A stretch of 12,287 nt of DNA from Candidatus Thorarchaeota archaeon (lineage in GTDB: Archaea; Asgardarchaeota; Thorarchaeia; Thorarchaeales; Thorarchaeaceae). Made by a program: the position numbers and the translations under genes. Below, in pieces: positions 1,110-12,287 of this stretch. Where the stretch lies: contig JAEORG010000462.1 of NCBI GenBank assembly GCA_016841005.1, positions 1 through 12,287 of the forward strand, given 5' to 3'. Below the pieces are notes generated by a model. That model saw nothing but the letters and a program-made list of their open reading frames with translations. It searched no databases and was not told where the DNA came from. The first letter of the stretch is position 1. Each line of letters starts with the position of its first letter.

Positions 1110-1292
1110 TTATTCTTCGATTGCGCCTTCAGGGCAGCTGTCTACACACGCATAGCATTCGGTGCATTCATCTGCACGGTCGACTTGATAGATGGCTTTG
1201 TCGTTTTCAATCACAAACAGTGTTGGGTCAACGGGACAGACATCAGCACAAGTTCCTTCTCCTGTACAAGCGTCAGTTATCTTCCAAATCAT
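1110..1292 (-). CDS. Dicluster ferredoxin A with one cluster-I cysteine replaced by Glu
   Basis: A 60-residue bacterial-type ferredoxin, a small soluble electron carrier. The C-terminal half has an intact CTECYACVDSCP motif (C43, C46, C49, C53). The N-terminal half reads CTGEGTCADVCP: C9, C15 and C19 are present, but Glu replaces the expected cysteine at position 12. Ferredoxins of this type that lose this cysteine, usually to Asp, often hold a [3Fe-4S] or an interconvertible [4Fe-4S] cluster. The expected cofactors are therefore one [4Fe-4S] (C43, C46, C49, C19) and one altered cluster (C9, C15, C53). It is about 80% identical to ferredoxin B just upstream and has its own promoter. ATG at 1292 matches the N-terminus of the paralogue. 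The partner enzyme is unknown. Confidence 0.9.
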   Translation of the reverse strand: MIWKITDACTGEGTCADVCPVDPTLFVIENDKAIYQVDRADECTECYACVDSCPEGAIEE

Positions 1293-1393: not shown

Positions 1394-1579
1394 TCATTCT
1401 CCTTCTTCAATCGCGCCTTCAGGACACGAATCGACGCATGCATAGCACTCTGTGCACTCATCTGCTCGATCAATCTGATACACAGCTTTTTCGTTCACAA
1501 CATAAAGTGTTGGGTCAACGGGACAGACATCAGCACAAGTTCCGCAGGCGGTACAGTTGTCATTTACCTTCCAGATCAT
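1394..1579 (-). CDS. Dicluster 2[4Fe-4S] ferredoxin B
   Basis: A 61-residue ferredoxin with both cluster motifs complete: CTACGTCADVCP (C9, C12, C15, C19) and CTECYACVDSCP. By family rule C9, C12, C15 and the last cysteine bind one [4Fe-4S] cluster, while the second CxxCxxC plus C19 bind the other. It is a soluble low-potential electron carrier, for example for oxidoreductases or hydrogenases; none is encoded nearby. It is the intact twin of ferredoxin A (about 80% identical) and is likely the ancestral form because it keeps all eight ligands. ATG at 1579 has only a weak ribosome binding site. A TATA box at 1641-1649 and a T-tract at 1380-1390 make it a single-gene unit. Confidence 0.92.
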   Translation of the reverse strand: MIWKVNDNCTACGTCADVCPVDPTLYVVNEKAVYQIDRADECTECYACVDSCPEGAIEEGE

Positions 1580-3430: not shown

Positions 3431-5239
3431 CTAGAGAGGATCTTTGGTATCAATCCATTCACGAAGAACCTTCGCGCTTGATTTAGTCATCCCCTCAACT
3501 TTCGATAGTTCCTCTACAGATGCAGATCTAACTTTATCATAACTTCCTAAGGTCTGAATCAATGCTGCTCTCCTTTTTGGTCCGATTCCTGGAGCTTCCT
3601 CGAGAAAAGATCCGCTGAATCGTTTTTCTCTCAGCTTATGATGATACTTCTGGGCAAATCGATGAGCTTCGTCCCGGACCCGTTGAATAAGTTTCAGACC
3701 ATCGGAATTAAGGTCTAAGACAATCCCATCCATTCTATCCCTTGTATAAAGTATCTCATCTTGTTTTGCGATGCTAGCTACATGGAGATATTCTAAACCA
3801 AGTGCTTTCAAAGCTTTTAATGCAACATTAAGCTGGCCTTTCCCACCATCGACAATAATGAGGTCAGGTAATGCTTTTCCTTCTTCTAAACGTCCTTTAT
3901 ACCTCCTAGAAATGACTTCATACATCATCGCATAATCATCAGGTGTTTCCTTTGAACGAATACGAAACATACGGTATCTTTTGTTGTTTGGTTCTCCATT
4001 ATTGAAAACTACACAAGATCCTGTGGGATCAGTTCCCTGAATATTTGCAATGTCGAACCCTTCGATATGAATGGGAGCTCGTGAGAGACTCAATGCGATC
4101 TTGAGTTCCTTCACACCTTCATCAACAATTTCTTCCTCACTATCTCCGAGAATCAGTATTTTCCGCAACTGGCGATAAGCATTCTTGTTTGCCATATCAA
4201 CTAATTCTTTTTGTTTTCCGGACTCCGGTACAACAATATTAACAGAACTACCAGCTGTTTCTTCCAACCATATACTCAGTTGTTTCATATCAGGAATAGA
4301 ACATGGGAGGAGTATTTCACTAGGAACCTTCGGTAACATAAAATAGAACTGCTCGATGAATGTTGTTAGGACATCAGCATCCGACGAATCCATATCCTCC
4401 TCAAAGTAGAAACTATCTTGCCCAATTAACCTCCCACCTCGAACTAACAACATCTCAATAAGAGCGGCATCTTCAGTTCGAGATATTCCTAAAACATCGC
4501 GACTAATTCCTCCAGTATCAACAATCTGCTGGCGTCGCATTACAATTTCAATATCTGTTAATCGATCTCTTAGCTCTGCCGCCTTTTCAAACTCCAGATT
4601 CTCTGAAGCAACACGCATCTGTTCTTCGATCATTTGAGTAAGCTGCTCAGAATTTCCATCGAGGTACAAACACATCTGCTCTACTAGACTCATGTATTCA
4701 TCTCTCGAGATGTAATCTTGACAAGGTGCAGTACATCGATCTAGGTGATAATCCATGCAAGCCCGCTTTTGTTTAGTTGGGTCAGGACACATAGCTACAG
4801 GAATGAACTTACGTGCTGTATCAAGAAACTTCTCCAATCTCTTCGTACTTCGATATGGACCAAAATATCTGGCACCATCTTTCTCAACATCGCGAGTCAC
4901 GATAAATGTCGGTTTTTCACATTCAAGATCAACTTTGATCCAAGCATGTCGTCTATCATCTTTCAGAGCGCGATTAAACTTTGGCTGATGCTTTTTGATT
5001 AATGTCGCTTCAAGAATCAGTGCTTCTCGCTCTGTGTTGGTGACCATTGTTTCGAGGTCTCTTACACGTTGCATCAATTCCCAGGTTCTTCTATCATAGT
5101 GGTTTCGTAAATAAGAACTGACGCGCTTACGTAGTTCCTTTGCCTTTCCAATGTATAGAATCTCACCCTTCTCATTCTTCCAGAGATACACTCCGGGTTG
5201 AAGAGGGAGGTCCTTTACTAACTTGGAGAGGTCTGACAT
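3431..5239 (-). CDS. uvrC: UvrC, excinuclease ABC subunit C
   Basis: UvrC makes both incisions around a lesion after UvrA and UvrB load, in the cytoplasm. In order, counted from ATG at 5239 (602 residues, the usual length): a GIY-YIG nuclease domain for the 3' cut (PGVYLW 15-20, LYIGKAKELRKR 28-39); a cysteine cluster C151, C161, C169, C173 matching the Fe-S site known in UvrC; a UVR helix pair for UvrB contact (about 202-229); the RNase H-like domain for the 5' cut, with D396 in GFDIANIQG, D464 in VDGGKGQ and DEAHRFA near 523; and tandem helix-hairpin-helix motifs at the C-terminus (PGIGPKRRAAL, VEGMTKSSAKVL). An in-frame TTG at 5248 would add three residues, but the ATG has the better spacing from upstream purines. 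All key residues appear present. Archaeal copies are generally attributed to transfer from bacteria. Confidence 0.96.
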   Translation of the reverse strand: MSDLSKLVKDLPLQPGVYLWKNEKGEILYIGKAKELRKRVSSYLRNHYDRRTWELMQRVRDLETMVTNTEREALILEATLIKKHQPKFNRALKDDRRHAWIKVDLECEKPTFIVTRDVEKDGARYFGPYRSTKRLEKFLDTARKFIPVAMCPDPTKQKRACMDYHLDRCTAPCQDYISRDEYMSLVEQMCLYLDGNSEQLTQMIEEQMRVASENLEFEKAAELRDRLTDIEIVMRRQQIVDTGGISRDVLGISRTEDAALIEMLLVRGGRLIGQDSFYFEEDMDSSDADVLTTFIEQFYFMLPKVPSEILLPCSIPDMKQLSIWLEETAGSSVNIVVPESGKQKELVDMANKNAYRQLRKILILGDSEEEIVDEGVKELKIALSLSRAPIHIEGFDIANIQGTDPTGSCVVFNNGEPNNKRYRMFRIRSKETPDDYAMMYEVISRRYKGRLEEGKALPDLIIVDGGKGQLNVALKALKALGLEYLHVASIAKQDEILYTRDRMDGIVLDLNSDGLKLIQRVRDEAHRFAQKYHHKLREKRFSGSFLEEAPGIGPKRRAALIQTLGSYDKVRSASVEELSKVEGMTKSSAKVLREWIDTKDPL

Positions 5240-5282
5240 TATTCTCAATAATCAATCCTTTGATTTCCTTTTCAGCCCTTCT

Positions 5283-5291: not shown

Positions 5292-5362
5292 TACAACTCT
5301 CGGAAAGATTGCGAATAGATTATTGTGAATTAGAGTTGGAAATTCAAGACGAGTTAAGTTTT

Positions 5363-5398
5363 TATTAATATCGCAAACGTTTGCGCTTATAGCAAGCG
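5363..5398 (+). promoter_or_regulatory. Promoter and palindromic operator of metallopeptidase 1
   Basis: The AT-rich TATA-like run TTATTAATAT leads directly into CGCAAACGTTTGCG (5372-5385), a perfect 14-bp palindrome. Positions 5363-5391 are identical over 29 bp to 7016-7044, in front of the paralogous peptidase; the next 7 bases differ at two. The palindrome touches the TATA region, so a bound regulator would hinder TBP/TFB or polymerase. The predicted start site is near 5390, leaving a leader of about 50 nt before the ATG at 5440. Confidence 0.65.
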
Positions 5399-5439
5399 CT
5401 GAAAAGCTATGTTTCCACTGCATAGAGCGGTAGAAGGCA

Positions 5440-6975
5440 ATGAATCTGACGCAGCTTGGTATTTGTAGATGGCCTGTGAAGACAGGCATCATCTTGGTAG
5501 TGTTAGGAGGAATCTTAGTGCCTTCTACCTTGTTCTTCATTTCAAGACCTTCCTCTCTTGCTAGCCAGTTCGCAACGGGGGTTTCTACAAACGAAGCCCC
5601 CTCTCTACAAAGGGATAGAGAATTGGTTGTGAGTGAAGAGAATATTGGTGATCAACAACTCTTCTGGGTTACATATCCCGAAGGGGCAGAACAGATACTT
5701 TCGACTCTACTCTCTGTTGGAACTCACTGCTACGTATACATGGCAAACACATCCATTGAGGCTCAAGGAGAATCTAATTCAATAACGAAGTGTGATGACC
5801 TAAGAGAGGTTTTTGACAGTGATATTTATCCAAAGGATGTTGAGCTTGCTGGCAATCCGGATGGAAATCTCGGGGATATTGATGGAGATCCCAAAGTCAC
5901 CATATTTCTTGGACCATTTGTGGAACATCTCTATGCAGGAAGATATGACCTTATGAATGAGATAGCAAGTACTCACTCAAACTACAGAGAAATGTTCATG
6001 ATTGATGCAACAAGGACAATCAATGATATGATCTGTCTCGCAATTCACGAGTTCAATCACCTAATCTGGTTTAATCATGAGATGGATGAGGCAGACTTTC
6101 TTGTCGAAGGTCTAGCAAACTTTGCAATCCAATATTGCGGATACTGGGGGGCGACTGCGGAAGCACAAGCCAGGAGATTCACAGAAAACCCACAGGATTC
6201 TCTACTATTCTTTAACCGGATTTCAGAAGATTATTACTGGGATGTAAGTTACGGACAATCATACCTATTCATGATCTACCTGTATGAACGATTCGGGATT
6301 GATTTCGTCAGAAGTCTTGTATCTATTCCTGAGGACGGTGCTATCGCTGTTGAAGTTGCACTATCCAATGGAGGATATGATTTGACCTTCAACGATGTCT
6401 ATCTGGATTGGATAGTAGCTTGTACTTTAGACAATCCAGAAATCTACGAAGGTGTCTATGGTTTTTCTACTGTTAACTATACGATAGATTACAAATATTC
6501 AGTTGGTGCAGACTACCCAATTGAAAGATCAGATATCACATTCAACTATTATGGCATTCATGCAAGGAAATTGTACTCTCCTTTGGATAATATGACTCTG
6601 AAAATAGAGAATCCGATTTCGAATGCACTAGGAATCGCAATAGCTGTTCTTGATGATGAAGGATGGAGTATTACTCAGACTCTCCATACTGAACAATCTA
6701 TGGAAGTTCTCGAGTACATCGAGGGCACCAACGTACGAGAGGTGTATTTGATAATGTCCTTGATGTCAGAAAACACACCTTCAGAATTTGGATACGTCTA
6801 TAATCTAGACGAAATTTCCTCCGTAGACTTGGATTACAGTATTTCTGAAGGAGTGCAATCCCAATCTTCAGAATTACCCATCTTTATCCTCCCCATTTCA
6901 GGAGTATTAGTTGTTAGCATCATAGCTATTGTTGTTCTTCATAGACGAAGAGATACAGTCGTTCAGGTGATGTAG
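5440..6975 (+). CDS. Membrane-anchored zinc metallopeptidase, M30 (hyicolysin)-like, copy 1
   Basis: A 511-residue cell-surface protein. A hydrophobic segment at about 17-35 (GIILVVLGGILVPSTLFFI) is a signal peptide or anchor. A C-terminal helix (about 482-502) is followed by a basic HRRRD tail, so the bulk faces outside. The catalytic core has HEFNH at 203-207 (zinc ligands H203 and H207, general base E204) and E223 in FLVEGLANFA as probable third ligand, a gluzincin layout. Before it, AGNPDGNLGDIDGDPKVTIFL (137-157) resembles the segment preceding the active site in M30 peptidases. A cysteine pair, C97 and C118, is conserved in copy 2 and could form a disulfide. The target is unknown: surface proteins or external peptides. 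ATG at 5440 has only a close, weak AGAAGG; no better in-frame start is visible. Peptidase class confident, MEROPS family tentative. Confidence 0.85.
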   Translation: MNLTQLGICRWPVKTGIILVVLGGILVPSTLFFISRPSSLASQFATGVSTNEAPSLQRDRELVVSEENIGDQQLFWVTYPEGAEQILSTLLSVGTHCYVYMANTSIEAQGESNSITKCDDLREVFDSDIYPKDVELAGNPDGNLGDIDGDPKVTIFLGPFVEHLYAGRYDLMNEIASTHSNYREMFMIDATRTINDMICLAIHEFNHLIWFNHEMDEADFLVEGLANFAIQYCGYWGATAEAQARRFTENPQDSLLFFNRISEDYYWDVSYGQSYLFMIYLYERFGIDFVRSLVSIPEDGAIAVEVALSNGGYDLTFNDVYLDWIVACTLDNPEIYEGVYGFSTVNYTIDYKYSVGADYPIERSDITFNYYGIHARKLYSPLDNMTLKIENPISNALGIAIAVLDDEGWSITQTLHTEQSMEVLEYIEGTNVREVYLIMSLMSENTPSEFGYVYNLDEISSVDLDYSISEGVQSQSSELPIFILPISGVLVVSIIAIVVLHRRRDTVVQVM

Positions 6976-7015
6976 AGCTTATTCCCTTCCCAAATCCAAA
7001 TCGAAACAACCAGTA

Positions 7016-7074
7016 TATTAATATCGCAAACGTTTGCGCTTATAACAAACGTTTTTAAATATCGCAAATGTATG
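7016..7074 (+). promoter_or_regulatory. Promoter with three operator-like sites, metallopeptidase 2
   Basis: Positions 7016-7044 repeat the 29-bp block seen before copy 1, including CGCAAACGTTTGCG at 7025-7038. A second, weaker site, CAAACGTTTT (7046-7055), and a half-site-like CGCAAATGTATG (7063-7074) follow. Between them lies TTTAAATA (7054-7061), a full archaeal TATA consensus, so the sites flank the box on both sides. If that box is used, transcription starts near 7084, and the leader is very short. Confidence 0.65.
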
Positions 7075-7082
7075 TTTCTAAC

Positions 7083-7087
7083 GGTGA
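7083..7087 (+). promoter_or_regulatory. Ribosome binding site deciding the TTG start of metallopeptidase 2
   Basis: GGTGA, part of the archaeal GGAGGTGAT core, lies 6 nt before TTG at 7094. No in-frame ATG precedes the hydrophobic leader, so TTG is the best start. Confidence 0.5.
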
Positions 7088-7093
7088 AACCAT

Positions 7094-8974
7094 TTGACTA
7101 TAAGGGATAAAGCTTCGAAGAAAGTTATTGCTGCAATAGTCATTCTTTTGGTCGCGGGGAGTATAGTGACTGCGAGTTGGCTGATATCAATAACAGAGAA
7201 CAATTCAGAGATTGATTGTATGTTAATCGGGCCCTCTCGAATTGAAAGTGGCTACATTCAGGTTGAAGCTTTATTCAGTCCTTTTACAGACCAGCTTAAG
7301 CTGACTTACGTCGAGTGTGATCCGATGCCAAATAACCTTCAAGTAATCAATAATGTCACAGGAAATGACCCATATGAAGAATGGTTCAGCGCCTCATTAT
7401 TGTATGATATATACGCGGAGTTCATCTCAGGGACAGGATACCAATTTGCGTTCCATTTCATAGATGAGTATGGTAAGAATAAGATAGTATACCTCTATGT
7501 TCCATTCTCTCCTGATTCCGAAACAAATACTCAACAGAACATTTCTGATGTGGTCATAAGTACTACTCAAAATTCAGAGGTTGTTGGAAATCAATTGCTC
7601 TTCTGGACTCCAACTCTAGAAGGATCAAATCAAGCGTTAGCCACACTACTTGCTGTAGGAAACTCATGCTATGTGTATATGGCTAACTCGTCAATCGACC
7701 TTCTAGGAGAGGAGAACTCTATCTCCAAATGCGAGGGATTGCGGAATGTATTTGATGAAACTATCTATCCGAAAGCAATAGAGCTTGCTGGTAATCCAGA
7801 TGGAAATTTAGGCGATATTGATAATGACCCTAGAATCACACTGTTTCTTTTTCCTATGGTTCGAACCATGGGGCAAGCATACTTGGGTACTCACCAACCA
7901 AGAGATGAACTCCCCGGCCCCCTCTCAAACGAACGAGAGATGATATATATCGACTCTGAAAAGGATCTGAACGAAACCATTTGCATCACCATTCATGAAT
8001 TCAACCACCTAATCTGGGACAATTACGAATTTGATGAGGCGGATTTCCTAACGGAAGGATTAGCAAACTATGCAATCGATTATACAGGATATTGGTGGTA
8101 CATCACAGATGCAGTAACTCGGTCATTTACTAATTACCCGGAAGTGTCCCTATTATATTTCAACAGATTCTATAGTGACTATTGGGATGCTAGCTATGGA
8201 CAGGGATACCTCTTCGTAACATATCTGGCAGAGAAATTTGGTGTGGAAACTGTGAGAAGCTTGGTTACAATGGAAGAAGATGCAGCTCTTGCAGTTGAGA
8301 AGGCTTTAAGCAACACGAACAATTCAATGTCATTCAATGATGTATACTTAGATTGGGTAACTGCATGTGTACTAGATAATCCATCTATTGAAGATGGTAA
8401 GTATGGTTTCCTTACTCAGGATTATGTCATTCAGAGGTATAGTAGACTCCTCGGCAACTGGCCTGTGGAGAGAAAGGATGTCAGACACAATCTCTATGGA
8501 ATGAATGTTAAGAAGATATTCAACCCTCAATCCAATTTTACATTTGAAATTGAAAATCCATATCCATATGCGTTAGGAATTGTAATTGCAGTACTTGATG
8601 CAGATGGCTGGAGGGTGAATCAATTGATCAGATATTCTGTAGCAGGTTCATTCTCGGAATATGTTGAGGGCCATGAGATTGAAGAAGTAAACATAATCAC
8701 CTGTGTAATGTCTGCAGACACTCCAACAGATTATCATGATGTTTTTGCATTAGATGAGATACCTCATGTGAATCTAGATTACTCAATAAGACAAGGAATT
8801 ATCACAAACTATTCACAAATCCCCTTCTTTGCTCTCATCATTGGATTACCGACAGTAGTTGTCATTTCAGCTGTGATAATGGTCAAATATAGGAGAGTTA
8901 AATATGTGAAATCAACAAACCTGATGAGAAAGGGAGAATTATCCTATCCTAAAGGATTTGTTGCAAGAAATTAA
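7094..8974 (+). CDS. Membrane-anchored zinc metallopeptidase, M30 (hyicolysin)-like, copy 2
   Basis: A 626-residue paralogue of copy 1, roughly half identical by eye across the shared 350-residue core. Residues 10-32 form the N-terminal hydrophobic leader. HEFNH at 301-305 and E321 in FLTEGLANYA give the zinc site, and C192 and C213 match the copy 1 cysteine pair. AGNPDGNLGDIDNDPRITLFL (232-252) and FNDVYLDW near 415 are also conserved. It differs by an extra N-terminal region of about 110 residues (40-150), rich in beta-strand-like alternation and without known motifs, perhaps an Ig-like adhesion or targeting domain. A C-terminal helix (about 575-597) is followed by a longer basic cytoplasmic tail. 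It heads an operon: the next gene starts 17 nt after its stop. All catalytic residues are intact. The substrate is unknown. Confidence 0.86.
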   Translation: MTIRDKASKKVIAAIVILLVAGSIVTASWLISITENNSEIDCMLIGPSRIESGYIQVEALFSPFTDQLKLTYVECDPMPNNLQVINNVTGNDPYEEWFSASLLYDIYAEFISGTGYQFAFHFIDEYGKNKIVYLYVPFSPDSETNTQQNISDVVISTTQNSEVVGNQLLFWTPTLEGSNQALATLLAVGNSCYVYMANSSIDLLGEENSISKCEGLRNVFDETIYPKAIELAGNPDGNLGDIDNDPRITLFLFPMVRTMGQAYLGTHQPRDELPGPLSNEREMIYIDSEKDLNETICITIHEFNHLIWDNYEFDEADFLTEGLANYAIDYTGYWWYITDAVTRSFTNYPEVSLLYFNRFYSDYWDASYGQGYLFVTYLAEKFGVETVRSLVTMEEDAALAVEKALSNTNNSMSFNDVYLDWVTACVLDNPSIEDGKYGFLTQDYVIQRYSRLLGNWPVERKDVRHNLYGMNVKKIFNPQSNFTFEIENPYPYALGIVIAVLDADGWRVNQLIRYSVAGSFSEYVEGHEIEEVNIITCVMSADTPTDYHDVFALDEIPHVNLDYSIRQGIITNYSQIPFFALIIGLPTVVVISAVIMVKYRRVKYVKSTNLMRKGELSYPKGFVARN

Positions 8975-8991
8975 CCAAGGGAGGCACACCT

Positions 8992-9885
8992 ATGACTAAA
9001 TCGGAATTCAGAAATTTCATTGAAACATGGAAGGTGAGCCTTAGATTCGCTTACCGAAATTATGTTTCATTCTTCCTCGCAATTCTAGGTGTATTGGTAA
9101 TCACAGCAGGATTGTTCTTCCTGATATTATTGATTTATTCGATTCCCACGATACTACAATCAGGTCCTTTAGATGACCTCTTCGATATTTTTGACCTTAT
9201 TGGGAATGCCTTTGATGGTGCTGTCAATGTTGGTGGTATTGGTGTAGCCATCTTTTTGGCAGGCTCAATTCTTGCTCCATTTCTCATGGCATTTGGAGCT
9301 CTATATGGAATGGCTCAGGAAATTATTGAAAGCGGGGGCACAATGGCAGAAGGCGTTTTTGTGTGGTATAAACGCAAATCAGGCAGGTTAGTATTAGGCG
9401 GCCTTTTCCAGTTCATCGTTGTGATCCTACCACTCATTCTAACCTACATTGTTGGAACGATTCAATACCAAGGTAGAGAACCGACTAACCAAGAATGGAC
9501 GATGTTCATCACATTTGCCTACCTGTGGATTGCCATAATAGCAGGAGTGTTTTCCATGGTTTTTCCTGCAATAGTAGATGGTTTAACAATCCATAAAGCT
9601 ATCAAACGTTCAGCAAGTATGTCAATAAGATTCTTACCGACCGTCTTTTCGGTATGGATAGTTATTCTGGCCATGGGATCAATTCTAGTTGTTCCACTCG
9701 TCCTGCAAGAAATAGTTGGTTTGATAATAATCGCCGATGCATTTTTTGAATTATACACCATACTATCTTTGTCGGCATTGGTCTTTCTTGTTACACCAGT
9801 TGCGGTATTAGCCATCAGTAGAACGTACATAATTCTGTCCTCATTCTATGAGGATATTGAAGAGATGGAGGATGATTCAGCATGA
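8992..9885 (+). CDS. Six-helix integral membrane protein of unknown function
   Basis: A 297-residue membrane protein with about six hydrophobic segments (27-51, 84-105, 134-157, 170-192, 217-240, 257-282) and an acidic C-terminal tail (EDIEEMEDDSA). The loop VDGLTIHKAIKRSASM (195-210), a conserved-looking amphipathic patch between helices 4 and 5, recalls DUF4013/DUF7847-type and glycerophosphodiesterase membrane-domain proteins, whose roles are largely unknown. No catalytic motif or transporter signature is evident. ATG at 8992 follows AAGGGAGG with 7 nt spacing, a strong ribosome binding site. It lies 17 nt after metallopeptidase 2 and overlaps the regulator gene by 4 nt, so it is almost certainly cotranscribed. 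It could help place, export or sense the peptidases; that is inference. Confidence 0.75.
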   Translation: MTKSEFRNFIETWKVSLRFAYRNYVSFFLAILGVLVITAGLFFLILLIYSIPTILQSGPLDDLFDIFDLIGNAFDGAVNVGGIGVAIFLAGSILAPFLMAFGALYGMAQEIIESGGTMAEGVFVWYKRKSGRLVLGGLFQFIVVILPLILTYIVGTIQYQGREPTNQEWTMFITFAYLWIAIIAGVFSMVFPAIVDGLTIHKAIKRSASMSIRFLPTVFSVWIVILAMGSILVVPLVLQEIVGLIIIADAFFELYTILSLSALVFLVTPVAVLAISRTYIILSSFYEDIEEMEDDSA

Positions 9886-10520
9886 ACCCAAGTCGAACCA
9901 CTTCGAAAACAATGAAGGATCTTGAGATTATAACAGATTTTGATACATTAAAGGCGCTCTTTTCTCAGAAAATAAGAGCGAAAATCGTTTTCGAGTATCT
10001 TGTAAATGAGGCAATGACAGTCAAACAGTTGGCAGATGAATTGAATAAGAATCCAGGAAACATTCTTCGTCATATTGACAAATTGAAAGAAGCAGGTCTT
10101 GTGCGTCAGGTGAGGACTGAGAGAACTAATACCGGCATTGTGCAACGATACTACAGAGCAACCGCAAAAGAGTACAAACTCGGACTCGCGGAAATGATGA
10201 AGGGAAAAGAACCTAGAAAATCACAAACTAAAAATCGTCTAGTTGACATGATACATGCCTTAGAAGCATACGGAGTGACAATTCCAGAAGAAAAGTTGGA
10301 TACTGCTGTTAATCTCCTCAAGGATATGTTTGATGCAGAGAACAAGGTCAGACCAAACATTTCAATCACAGATCAGGAGTTCTGGAACAATCTTCAGAGG
10401 GAACAACAATCAGATGTATCTCTACTTATGAGAGACCTATTCCTCTCCGAGGATTCGGAATATCTTCAGAGAAGGAAAAAATGGAATGACTTCGTAAAAT
10501 CGCATATGAATCTCAAATAA
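9882..10520 (+). CDS. ArsR-like winged-helix transcription regulator
   Basis: A 212-residue cytoplasmic DNA-binding protein. Residues 21-95 form a winged helix of the ArsR/HTH_20 type: helix 1 at FSQKIRAKIVFEYL (27-40), helix 2 at TVKQLADEL (46-54), a recognition helix at NPGNILRHIDKLKEAGLV (57-74) and a wing ending in YYRATAKEYKL. Residues 115-210 are helical and charged, with no metal-binding cysteines, and are probably a dimerisation or effector part I cannot assign. ATG at 9882 overlaps the preceding stop as ATGA, and GGAGG lies 10 nt upstream, indicating translational coupling. Being last in the peptidase operon, it is the natural candidate to bind the CGCAAACGTTTGCG palindromes upstream of both peptidases. 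It ends 5 nt from the convergent uvrA stop. Confidence 0.85.
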   Translation: MNPSRTTSKTMKDLEIITDFDTLKALFSQKIRAKIVFEYLVNEAMTVKQLADELNKNPGNILRHIDKLKEAGLVRQVRTERTNTGIVQRYYRATAKEYKLGLAEMMKGKEPRKSQTKNRLVDMIHALEAYGVTIPEEKLDTAVNLLKDMFDAENKVRPNISITDQEFWNNLQREQQSDVSLLMRDLFLSEDSEYLQRRKKWNDFVKSHMNLK

Positions 10521-10525
10521 CTGAA

Positions 10526-12287
10526 CTACTCGATTGGTCCATACTTCACATTGGGTCCATAAAGTGTAGCTCTAAGATGGTTTCCTGTATACGATGATGC
10601 AATATCACACAGCTCTTCAGGGGTTCCCATACCTACCAGCATTCCGCCTTTGTCCCCACCCTCTGGACCAAGGTCGATGACATGGTCCGCAGTTTTGATT
10701 ACCTCAAGATTATGCTCTATCATAATCACTGTATTTCCAGCATTGACAAGTCTGTTGATGACCTTAAGAAGAACATGAACATCATAGGCGGATAGTCCGG
10801 TCGTGGGTTCATCGAGGATATACATTGTGTTTCCAGTACCCTTTCGCGAGAGCTCAGAAGCGAGCTTCATCCTCTGCGCTTCCCCTCCACTGAGTTGGGT
10901 TGCAGGTTGCCCAAGTTGCAAATATCCAAGTCCCACATCGACCAAGGTCTGGAGCTTGTCCTTAATTTTCGGAATTTCTCCAAAGAAGTAAAGGGCTTCA
11001 TCAATTGTCAGTGACAGGATTTCATTGATGTTCTTCCCCTTGAATTTCACCTCAAGGGTCTCTCTGTCGAATCGTTTACCTTTACAAACATCGCATTGGA
11101 TATACACATCACTCATGAAGTGCATCTCAACCCTTATGACGCCACTACCTTCACACTTCTCGCAACGACCCTCTCGTGTGTTGAAACTAAAACGACCTAG
11201 AGTGTATCCTCGTGCCTTTGCATCAGGCATCTTAGCAAAGATTTCTCGTATGTATCCAAATGTCTTAGTATAGGTCGCAGGATTGGACCTTGGTGTTCTG
11301 CCAATCGGACTCTGGTCAACAAGAACCAACCGATCAATATTCTCAACTCCAATGAGTTCTTTGTATTTCCCAGGTTTCTTACTCGCACCATTTAGCTCTC
11401 TGGCCAGAGCATTGTATAGAGTTTCATTTAGTAGAGTACTCTTGCCACTACCTGACACTCCGGTCACACATATGAACTTTCCAAGCGGAAATTCAACATC
11501 AATACCTCTGAGATTGTGTTGCTCAGCACCTCTAAGGAAGATTGATTGCCCATTACCCGCTCGCCTCTCTTCAGGAACTGGAATCTGCTTCTCACCCGAT
11601 AGATATTGAGCAGTGAGGGATTCCTCATTCAGGAGAACCTCATCAGGAGCGCCCTCAGATATGATTTCACCACCATGAACTCCAGCAAACGGACCTAGGT
11701 CAATAATATAATCAGCTGCCTCTATTGTATCCTTGTCATGTTCAATCACAACAACAGTATTCCCGAGACTCCTGAGGTTGTAGAAAGTTTCAATCAGTCG
11801 ATGGATGTCTCTAGGATGTAACCCTATGCTGGGTTCATCCAAACAGTAGAGCACTCCGGTAAGAGCTGATCCTATCTGTGTAGCTAATCTGATTCGTTGA
11901 GACTCTCCTCCACTAAGAGTCATAGATAGTCTATCAAGGTTCAGATATTCAAGTCCCACTGACAGCAAGAAACGAAGCCTTGATAGTATCTCTTTTAGAA
12001 CAAGTTCTGCAATCTTTTTCTCCCGATCACTCAGTTCGATGTTCTCAAAGAAATCGTATGCCGCCTGAATGGTCAATGAAGACACAGAATCGATGGATTT
12101 TCCACCTACAGTAACAGCAAGACTTTCTGGTTTCAACTTTCTCCCATTGCAACTTGCACAGACTGACTTAGCAGCAAATTTCTCACCAATCTGTTGAGCT
12201 CGATATTGATACCAGGGTTTTGTGCTACTATTTCCGTCCTCAAACACTTTCTCAAGATATGGAACAACCCCAGTCCATTTTCTTGTG
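10526..12287 (-). CDS. uvrA: UvrA, excinuclease ABC subunit A, partial (N-terminus beyond right edge)
   Basis: UvrA is the damage-recognition ATPase of nucleotide excision repair; it loads UvrB. About 586 C-terminal residues of an expected 940 or so are present. The frame stays open to 12287 (RKWTGVVPYLEK before the GTG at 12247), so that GTG is internal, not a start. Visible in order are a CASCNGRKL zinc-type knuckle; the first nucleotide site's signature LSGGESQRIRLA and Walker B LYCLDEPSIGLHPRD; the second site's Walker A GVSGSGKSTLLN; a zinc module (CEKCEGSG paired with CDVCKGKRFD); then LSGGEAQRMKLA and MYILDEPTTGL, with a distal IEHN switch histidine. Everything seen is intact. The first Walker A lies outside the window. 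It is encoded on the same strand as uvrC but separated from it by the peptidase gene group. Confidence 0.96.
   Translation of the reverse strand, partial: TRKWTGVVPYLEKVFEDGNSSTKPWYQYRAQQIGEKFAAKSVCASCNGRKLKPESLAVTVGGKSIDSVSSLTIQAAYDFFENIELSDREKKIAELVLKEILSRLRFLLSVGLEYLNLDRLSMTLSGGESQRIRLATQIGSALTGVLYCLDEPSIGLHPRDIHRLIETFYNLRSLGNTVVVIEHDKDTIEAADYIIDLGPFAGVHGGEIISEGAPDEVLLNEESLTAQYLSGEKQIPVPEERRAGNGQSIFLRGAEQHNLRGIDVEFPLGKFICVTGVSGSGKSTLLNETLYNALARELNGASKKPGKYKELIGVENIDRLVLVDQSPIGRTPRSNPATYTKTFGYIREIFAKMPDAKARGYTLGRFSFNTREGRCEKCEGSGVIRVEMHFMSDVYIQCDVCKGKRFDRETLEVKFKGKNINEILSLTIDEALYFFGEIPKIKDKLQTLVDVGLGYLQLGQPATQLSGGEAQRMKLASELSRKGTGNTMYILDEPTTGLSAYDVHVLLKVINRLVNAGNTVIMIEHNLEVIKTADHVIDLGPEGGDKGGMLVGMGTPEELCDIASSYTGNHLRATLYGPNVKYGPIE

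What the first reader, a model, noticed from the sequence alone, without database searches (positions are those of the whole stretch)
5363..10520. Possible self-regulated surface-proteolysis module: two M30-like peptidases, a six-helix membrane protein and a winged-helix regulator
Two paralogous outward-facing, C-terminally anchored zinc peptidases (HEFNH...E intact in both) share a palindromic promoter element. The second is in an operon (17-nt gap, then 4-nt overlap) with a membrane protein and an ArsR-like regulator. That layout suggests one circuit: the regulator controls both peptidases and itself, and the membrane protein assists or senses. I know of no named system with this composition. 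Motifs, spacing and palindromes are seen; the circuit is inferred.
Basis: partly seen in the sequence, partly recalled or inferred. Interest (0 to 1): 0.7.

Follow-up and report, generated by a model that had tools for sequence, protein, structure and literature searches.

The report
Asgard membrane–regulator pair controlling surface peptidases
In Thorarchaeota (Asgard archaea), a small DNA-binding regulator paired with a membrane protein appears to control its own gene cluster through a conserved DNA switch, and here the cluster includes two surface zinc peptidases, which makes it a candidate two-protein way of linking the cell surface to gene expression.

Summary
The anatomy is confirmed. 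Two M30-like peptidases, a helical membrane protein (MP) and a winged-helix regulator (REG) lie in order, both peptidase promoters carry an identical 25-nt palindromic element, and the gaps are 17 nt and a 4-nt overlap.

The four-gene reading is only partly right. The core is the MP–REG pair: 61 of 67 REG matches in 47 genomes of the Thorarchaeal class have an MP directly upstream, but only six follow a peptidase. Elsewhere the pair sits with Toastrack proteins, serine hydrolases or ABC permeases.

The palindrome link is strong. A three-box operator with 19-nt spacing round a TATA-like stretch precedes the peptidase operon in all six genomes; in a seventh, boxes 1–2 precede a peptidase-1 ortholog. 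The composite pattern occurs nowhere else in the 47 genomes. Sister operons carry a related AAACGTTT-type operator, and the REG recognition helix changes with it.

Most likely, REG represses its own operon and MP relays a membrane cue that relieves it; the peptidases are one clade's output. DNA binding is well supported, repression likely, MP as sensor inferred. This is a new variant of a known kind (membrane protein–winged-helix dyads).

The parts
5440..6975 (+). Peptidase 1: M30-like HExxH zinc peptidase, 511 aa, hydrophobic stretch near each end
7094..8974 (+). Peptidase 2: M30-like zinc peptidase, 626 aa, extra N-terminal beta region, first gene of the three-gene operon
8992..9885 (+). MP: all-helical membrane protein, 297 aa; CysZ/choline-transporter-like arrangement (tentative)
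9882..10520 (+). REG: PH1932-like ArsR-type winged-helix regulator, 212 aa, no Cys, recognition-helix stretch NPGNILRHI
5372..5385 (+). Operator palindrome CGCAAACGTTTGCG of the peptidase 1 promoter (inside the exact 25-nt repeat 5367-5391); degenerate second box at 5391-5400
5360..5371 (+). AT-rich TATA-like stretch just before the peptidase 1 palindrome
   Evidence: by eye
7025..7038 (+). Operator box 1, palindrome CGCAAACGTTTGCG, peptidase 2 operon
7044..7053 (+). Operator box 2 (AACAAACGTT), 19 nt after box 1
7054..7062 (+). TATA-like stretch TTTAAATAT between boxes 2 and 3; same place in the six operons of other genomes
7063..7072 (+). Operator box 3 (CGCAAATGTA), 19 nt after box 2

Best explanation
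The locus is one clade's version of a widespread Asgard two-protein regulatory pair: a multi-helix membrane protein (MP) and a PH1932-like winged-helix regulator (REG). REG binds GCAAACGTT-type boxes that flank the TATA-like stretch and so keeps TBP/TFB/RNA polymerase off its own operon and off the peptidase 1 promoter (operator link shown by comparative genomics; binding and repression inferred). MP, encoded immediately before REG, relays a membrane or surface cue to REG, probably by holding or deforming it at the membrane, which lifts repression (inferred). The output is a surface protein. In this clade it is one or two C-terminally anchored M30-like zinc peptidases; in sister operons the neighbours are a Toastrack protein, a serine beta-lactamase-like hydrolase or a MacB/FtsX ABC permease. 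The peptidase is an interchangeable effector, not the core of the system.
For: 61 of 67 REG matches in 47 genomes of the Thorarchaeal class have an MP directly upstream on the same strand; of the 6 without, G019 C179, G032 C75 and G024 C213 lie at contig ends by their coordinates. Peptidase-MP-REG order in 6 of 6 genomes with the close peptidase. Composite operator (<=1 mismatch) in 7 of 47 genomes, each time before a peptidase of this group, 0 in the reversed control; the pattern was drawn from the window and five of these promoters, so the informative results are G005, G019 and its absence elsewhere. Three-box score 25-30 of 30 in the seven three-box operon promoters (window peptidase 2 and six genomes); best 21 in 575,306 bases of L079-L118, scanned at 19/19 spacing with a pre-filter on box 1. 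CAAACGTTTG: all 24 sites in 698,595 bases of 51 sources lie at REG-operon or peptidase promoters (places read). It is at 19 of 44 REG promoters against 7 of 426 other gene starts (Fisher p 1.9e-16), and those 7 are neighbours sharing the same region. Core AACGTT: 32 of 44 against 35 of 426. Recognition-helix stretch NPGN[IV]LRHI in 8 of 8 peptidase-clade REGs (half-site GCAAACGTT); N[PA]GTILHHI in 29 of 29 Toastrack-context REGs (mostly TCAAACGTTTGR); KPGTxLHHV in 7 of 7 group D REGs that could be read, of 10 (mostly GGAACGTT). Peptidase-clade REGs are one clade, support 100/100.
Against: No binding, expression or interaction data. MP's best structural matches are transporters (CysZ, choline transporter-like), so it may be an effector rather than a sensor; 16 MP-family matches are not in a REG pair, some at contig ends. 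AAACGTTT misses 11 of 29 Toastrack-context and 9 of 9 group D promoters; of the 11, 5 have an AACGTT core in the same stretch, and of the 9, 3 do; more lie further upstream, a looser test. GCAAACGTTTGC alone is no rarer than its reversed control in these genomes. The window's peptidase 1 promoter has only one good box and a differently placed TATA-like stretch. Operator conservation among related genomes partly reflects shared descent.
Confidence: 0.55

Rival explanations
1. REG is an autoregulated repressor that senses a cytoplasmic ligand with its own C-terminal domain; MP is a co-regulated effector (transporter or lipid-handling protein), not a sensor.
For: MP's best structural matches are CysZ and choline-transporter-like proteins, and one distant relative shows a weak GPDPase_memb match (E 0.0014, below cut-off). 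REG has about 110 residues beyond the wHTH, like PH1932. A second MP gene precedes the pair in 38 of 61 cases, which suits a hetero-oligomeric transporter.
Against: The pair stays together while the other genes change; this fits a signalling partner better, though it does not exclude a transporter.
Confidence: 0.3
2. A peptidase-centred surface proteolysis circuit: peptidases, MP and REG form one dedicated system, with MP helping or sensing proteolysis.
For: Strict peptidase-MP-REG order in 6 of 6 genomes plus the window, with operators before both peptidases.
Against: MP and REG occur without peptidases in most genomes of the class, and 23 of 29 peptidase loci show no MP or REG match in the DNA fetched, some on short contigs.
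Confidence: 0.1
3. The AACGTT boxes bind a different regulator (or are a promoter feature) and their link with REG is only shared synteny.
For: All evidence is comparative; the operons are orthologous and related genomes share ancestry.
Against: The same core precedes REG operons with unrelated first genes (peptidase, MP, small TM protein, radical SAM protein), CAAACGTTTG is absent from 419 of 426 other gene starts, and the element changes in step with the REG recognition helix.
Confidence: 0.07

Closest known systems
HAAS-PadR-like wHTH dyads of the extended PSP/Lia envelope-stress network (PMC11237479; section 28 read, other parts as passages)
   Same: Two-component substitute: a signalling partner, often fused to membrane domains, always encoded beside a stand-alone wHTH, with Toastrack and FtsX/MacB among the associated domains; sister operons here show the same neighbours.
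   Different: MP has no HAAS-type Pfam match; REG is ArsR/PH1932-like, not PadR; the host is Asgard; the output here is an M30-like peptidase.
SdpR/SdpI of Bacillus subtilis (PMC6818787, passages seen: sdpRI encodes its own repressor and a membrane antitoxin; membrane sequestration of SdpR by SdpI is recalled)
   Same: ArsR-type autorepressor encoded with a polytopic membrane protein.
   Different: REG scores far below the SdpR model (23.2 against 100 bits); no SdpI domain was listed for MP; gene order is reversed; no toxin seen.
PH1932 (1uly/2cwe), ArsR-type wHTH of Pyrococcus horikoshii
   Same: Full-length profile match to REG, E 1.8e-24.
   Different: Two papers in the library hold the name; the one passage read lists it only as a wHTH family (PMC6316755). 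Its function and neighbours were not examined.
Lugdulysin (7bb8), M30 zinc metallopeptidase of Staphylococcus lugdunensis
   Different: The archaeal enzymes are predicted membrane-anchored, with extra beta regions and 19% identity.

Membership tests
M30 (hyicolysin/lugdulysin) peptidases | HExxH zinc motif with a downstream Glu ligand | tested here: met
   H301, E302, H305 and E321 invariant in 40 sequences; aligned to lugdulysin
M30 (hyicolysin/lugdulysin) peptidases | Lugdulysin fold and active-site Tyr | tested here: met
M30 (hyicolysin/lugdulysin) peptidases | Match to a curated M30 family model | tested here: inconclusive
   No M30 model listed at E<=0.1 for either window peptidase; only Peptidase_MA_2 and MXAN_6640 below cut-off. 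I therefore call them M30-like
M30 (hyicolysin/lugdulysin) peptidases | Proteolytic activity | not testable with these tools
   needs an enzyme assay
ArsR/SmtB metalloregulators | ArsR-type wHTH | tested here: met
   PF01022 37.4 bits against cut-off 22
ArsR/SmtB metalloregulators | Cys metal-binding motif / metalloregulator model | tested here: not met
   0 Cys in 212 residues; NF033788 30.9 against cut-off 55 bits
PH1932-like ArsR regulators | Full-length similarity to PH1932 | tested here: met
   profile A2 against 1uly, positions 11-202, E 1.8e-24
HAAS-PadR dyads | Signalling partner encoded next to a stand-alone wHTH | tested here: met
   MP directly upstream of REG in 61 of 67
HAAS-PadR dyads | HAAS domain (DUF1700/DUF1048) | tested here: not met
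   Pfam scans of the window MP and three MP relatives at E<=0.1 list none
HAAS-PadR dyads | PadR-type wHTH | tested here: not met
   PF03551 13.7 against cut-off 27 bits; ArsR models above cut-off
SdpR/SdpI | SdpR equivalence | tested here: not met
   NF033789 23.2 against cut-off 100 bits
Lia/PSP system | Toastrack/LiaF protein in the operon | tested here: not met
   Not among the window proteins scanned; present in sister operons as cluster c2 (profile E 2.3e-11 to 4qrk; LiaF-like_C matched by 20 of the 22 members scanned, of 31)
CysZ / choline-transporter-like membrane proteins | Shared fold | tested here: inconclusive
CysZ / choline-transporter-like membrane proteins | Sequence match to the family | tested here: inconclusive
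   No CysZ or CTL model listed at E<=0.1 for the four MPs scanned; one of them weakly matches GPDPase_memb

The most novel reading that the evidence does not exclude
Asgard archaea use a phosphorylation-free transmembrane signalling dyad, a multi-helix (perhaps CysZ/CTL-like) membrane protein plus a PH1932-like repressor, as a plug-in switch. Each paralogous copy carries its own co-evolved operator and drives a different surface output: M30-like peptidase, Toastrack scaffold, serine hydrolase or MacB-type ABC permease.
Probability: 0.45. Interest if true: 0.8.

Novelty: new variant of a known kind. Interest (0 to 1): 0.58.

Why it matters
Little is known about how Asgard archaea, the closest prokaryotic relatives of eukaryotes, sense and remodel their surface (recalled). 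This gives a defined gene pair, with REG matches in 44 of 47 and MP matches in 44 of 47 genomes of the Thorarchaeal class, an operator that can be read from sequence, and a predicted specificity code (recognition-helix positions against the outer operator bases) that can be tested with purified protein, without growing the organism.

Tried and rejected
Peptidase-defined four-gene system: rejected because MP-REG pairs are far commoner than peptidase operons and peptidases occur without the pair.

Genome-wide regulon from the 12-mer GCAAACGTTTGC: 7 of 47 genomes had a match and 9 of 47 had one to the reversed control. Only 2 of the 7 sites (G003, G019) lie at peptidase promoters. Regions round four of the other five were fetched but not analysed. 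The 13-mer GTCAAACGTTTGA gave 7 places in 6 genomes, 0 in the control; 6 of 7 lie before MP-MP genes of REG operons (in G032 REG is on another contig), the one in G023 does not.

Peptidase-clade REGs nested inside the Toastrack-context group: suggested by the tree (98/87), but the AU test does not reject the Toastrack-context group as one clade (p 0.427), and a quick MP tree groups the peptidase-operon MPs with group D instead. The origin of the peptidase operon is left open.

Thiol metal sensing by REG: rejected (no Cys).

MP fold: Foldseek gave no match below E 0.001; the CysZ/CTL likeness rests on VIA-align and stays tentative. A PDB sequence search with the MP profile gave only chance-level hits (E 0.22 and worse).

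Rows dropped: the promoter count covers 44 REG genes, namely 43 of the 67 class matches plus the window, which is counted once, by its peptidase 1 promoter; L097, L116 and L123 had too little upstream sequence, L094's REG was lost by the gene picker, the other matches were not fetched with flanks for this count. The pair count left out the seven MP rows of G222-G226.

Print searches for this dyad: listings show no paper whose title or abstract start describes it; the library holds open-licence papers only. PMC11237479 says Toastrack is sporadic in archaea, with occasional transfers to Euryarchaeota (passages).

No structure of REG or of an MP-REG complex was predicted (both jobs went to MP and peptidase 2).

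Hairpin test: simple shuffles, no covariation test; 8 of 23 gaps had a longest stem that 30 or more of 200 shuffles equalled.
Full report
What is there. The window is Thorarchaeal (Asgard) by its protein relatives; no whole genome is held for it. Between uvrC (minus strand, 3431-5248) and uvrA (minus strand, from 10526, TIGR00630 above cut-off) lie peptidase 1 (5440-6975), peptidase 2 (7094-8974), a membrane protein MP (8992-9885) and a regulator REG (9882-10520).

REG. It is a PH1932-like ArsR-type protein over its full length (E 1.8e-24 to 1uly), without cysteines, hence not a thiol metal sensor. Matches at E<=1e-30 exist in 44 of 47 genomes of the class, 67 in all.

The core is the pair. 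Of 67 REG matches, 61 have an MP directly upstream on the same strand, and 38 of these have a second MP before it. By neighbourhood there are four contexts in the class and beyond. (A) Peptidase-MP-REG: 6 genomes and the window. (B/C) REG followed by a Toastrack protein, nearly always MP-MP-REG-Toastrack: 29 loci in the promoter set; the Toastrack call rests on profile E 2.3e-11 to 4qrk, which PMC11237479 names as a Toastrack structure, and on LiaF-like_C in 20 of 22 members scanned. (D) Loci with small two-helix proteins, MP-REG, a multi-TM protein and a serine hydrolase (PF00144 in the one scanned) in varying order. (E) Five genomes outside the class (G222-G226) with MP-REG near an ABC ATPase and, in G223-G225, a permease of about 960 residues downstream (ABC_tran, FtsX and MacB_PCD models in the G223 proteins, the only ones scanned). 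Peptidases also occur without the pair: 23 of 29 peptidase loci, Heimdallarchaeal and a second Thorarchaeal group, show no MP or REG match in the DNA fetched, some of it on short contigs.

The operator. In the window the peptidase 2 promoter carries three boxes at 7025, 7044 and 7063 with TTTAAATAT between boxes 2 and 3. All six genomes with peptidase-MP-REG show the same three boxes at 19-nt period with TTTAAYA between boxes 2 and 3; in G005 the promoter lies on another contig that ends inside a peptidase-like N-terminus (by eye). The composite pattern with at most one mismatch occurs in 7 of 47 genomes: these six and, before a peptidase-1 ortholog, G019; the reversed control gave none. The pattern was drawn from the window and five of these promoters, so G005, G019 and the absence elsewhere are the independent part. 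Three-box scores are 25-30 of 30 in the seven three-box operon promoters (window and six genomes), 22-23 in the two peptidase-1 promoters (window, G019), and at most 21 in 575,306 bases of loci L079-L118. In the six genomes the ATG lies 21-22 nt after TTTAAYA (read by eye), which suggests leaderless mRNA (inference); the window's TTG start lies further off.

The operator goes with REG, not with the peptidase. In 51 sources (698,595 bases) CAAACGTTTG occurs 24 times, and all 24 places lie at the start of a REG operon or of a peptidase of the group (places read against gene tables). AAACGTTT is found at 6 of 6 context A, 18 of 29 context B/C and 0 of 9 context D promoters; CAAACGTTTG at 4 of 6, 15 of 29 and 0 of 9; GAACGTTC at 2 of 9 context D. 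Among 426 other gene starts in the same loci AAACGTTT and CAAACGTTTG occur at 16 and 7 (Fisher p 4.5e-18 and 1.9e-16); the 7 are neighbours that share the operon's upstream region. The bare core AACGTT is at 32 of 44 REG promoters and 35 of 426 others. Some B/C misses carry sites further upstream, in L086 and L089 before a gene that starts the operon (radical SAM in L089); several context D loci carry GGAACGTT sites outside the counted stretch.

Specificity code. The stretch at the recognition-helix position (position recalled from ArsR-type proteins) reads NPGN[IV]LRHI in all 8 peptidase-clade REGs, N[PA]GTILHHI in all 29 B/C REGs and KPGTxLHHV in the 7 of 10 context D REGs that the script could read. 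The operators read GCAAACGTT (half-site), mostly TCAAACGTTTGR (exceptions L084 and L087) and mostly GGAACGTT in the same order. Three groups are few, but the change in protein and DNA together is what a binding pair predicts. Peptidase-clade REGs form one clade (100/100).

Mechanism. Boxes that touch both sides of the TATA-like stretch point to repression of the operon, including REG itself, by blocking the basal factors (established archaeal logic, recalled). That MP relieves repression is inferred from the constant pairing and the surface nature of several outputs. The nearest published idea is the HAAS-PadR dyad, which its authors propose as an alternative to two-component systems and which also goes with Toastrack and FtsX/MacB (PMC11237479, section 28 read). 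The HAAS and PadR parts were tested here and not met, so this is an analogue, not a member. SdpR/SdpI is a second analogue (PMC6818787, passages).

Verdict on the finding. Observation confirmed; circuit partly right; the unit to study is the MP-REG pair. In the open-licence library, the listings show no paper describing it.

Noticed in passing
Loci L079-L109, gap between the two MP genes (for example L086, L089, L098, L102): A hairpin with different but self-complementary stems (such as GAGAGTGCCTC/GAGGCACTCTC, GCTCACACT/AGTGTGGGC, TGCTCCCCTC/GAGGGGAGTG) lies between the two MP genes in many Toastrack-context operons, and another (GTGACCCCATCA...) before MP in group D. Looks like an RNA element kept by compensatory change; covariation not tested.
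   Followed up: partly
Downstream of REG in L079-L109 (cluster c2, for example L081:9206-9973): A Toastrack/LiaF-like protein is a regular neighbour of REG in this class, whereas the passages seen of PMC11237479 call Toastrack sporadic in archaea, with transfers to Euryarchaeota.
   Followed up: partly
L127:6044-6739 (G019): The peptidase 1 reading frame runs in frame into about the last 40 residues of an MP-like sequence at the contig end, while REG starts at the end of another contig: an internal deletion or an assembly scar.
   Followed up: partly
L175-L179 (G222-G226): Outside the class the MP-REG pair, in G224 and G225 in two tandem copies, sits near ABC ATPase and, in G223-G225, FtsX/MacB-like permease genes.
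   Followed up: partly
window 1110-1292 and 1394-1579, minus strand: Two neighbouring small ferredoxin-like genes whose DNA repeats at 76-81% identity (Fer4 models for the first).
   Followed up: no
window 3431-5248 and 10526-12247: The module lies between uvrC and uvrA; G019 has the uvrC relative next to peptidase 1 and uvrA relatives next to REG on separate contigs, so the site looks shared.
   Followed up: partly
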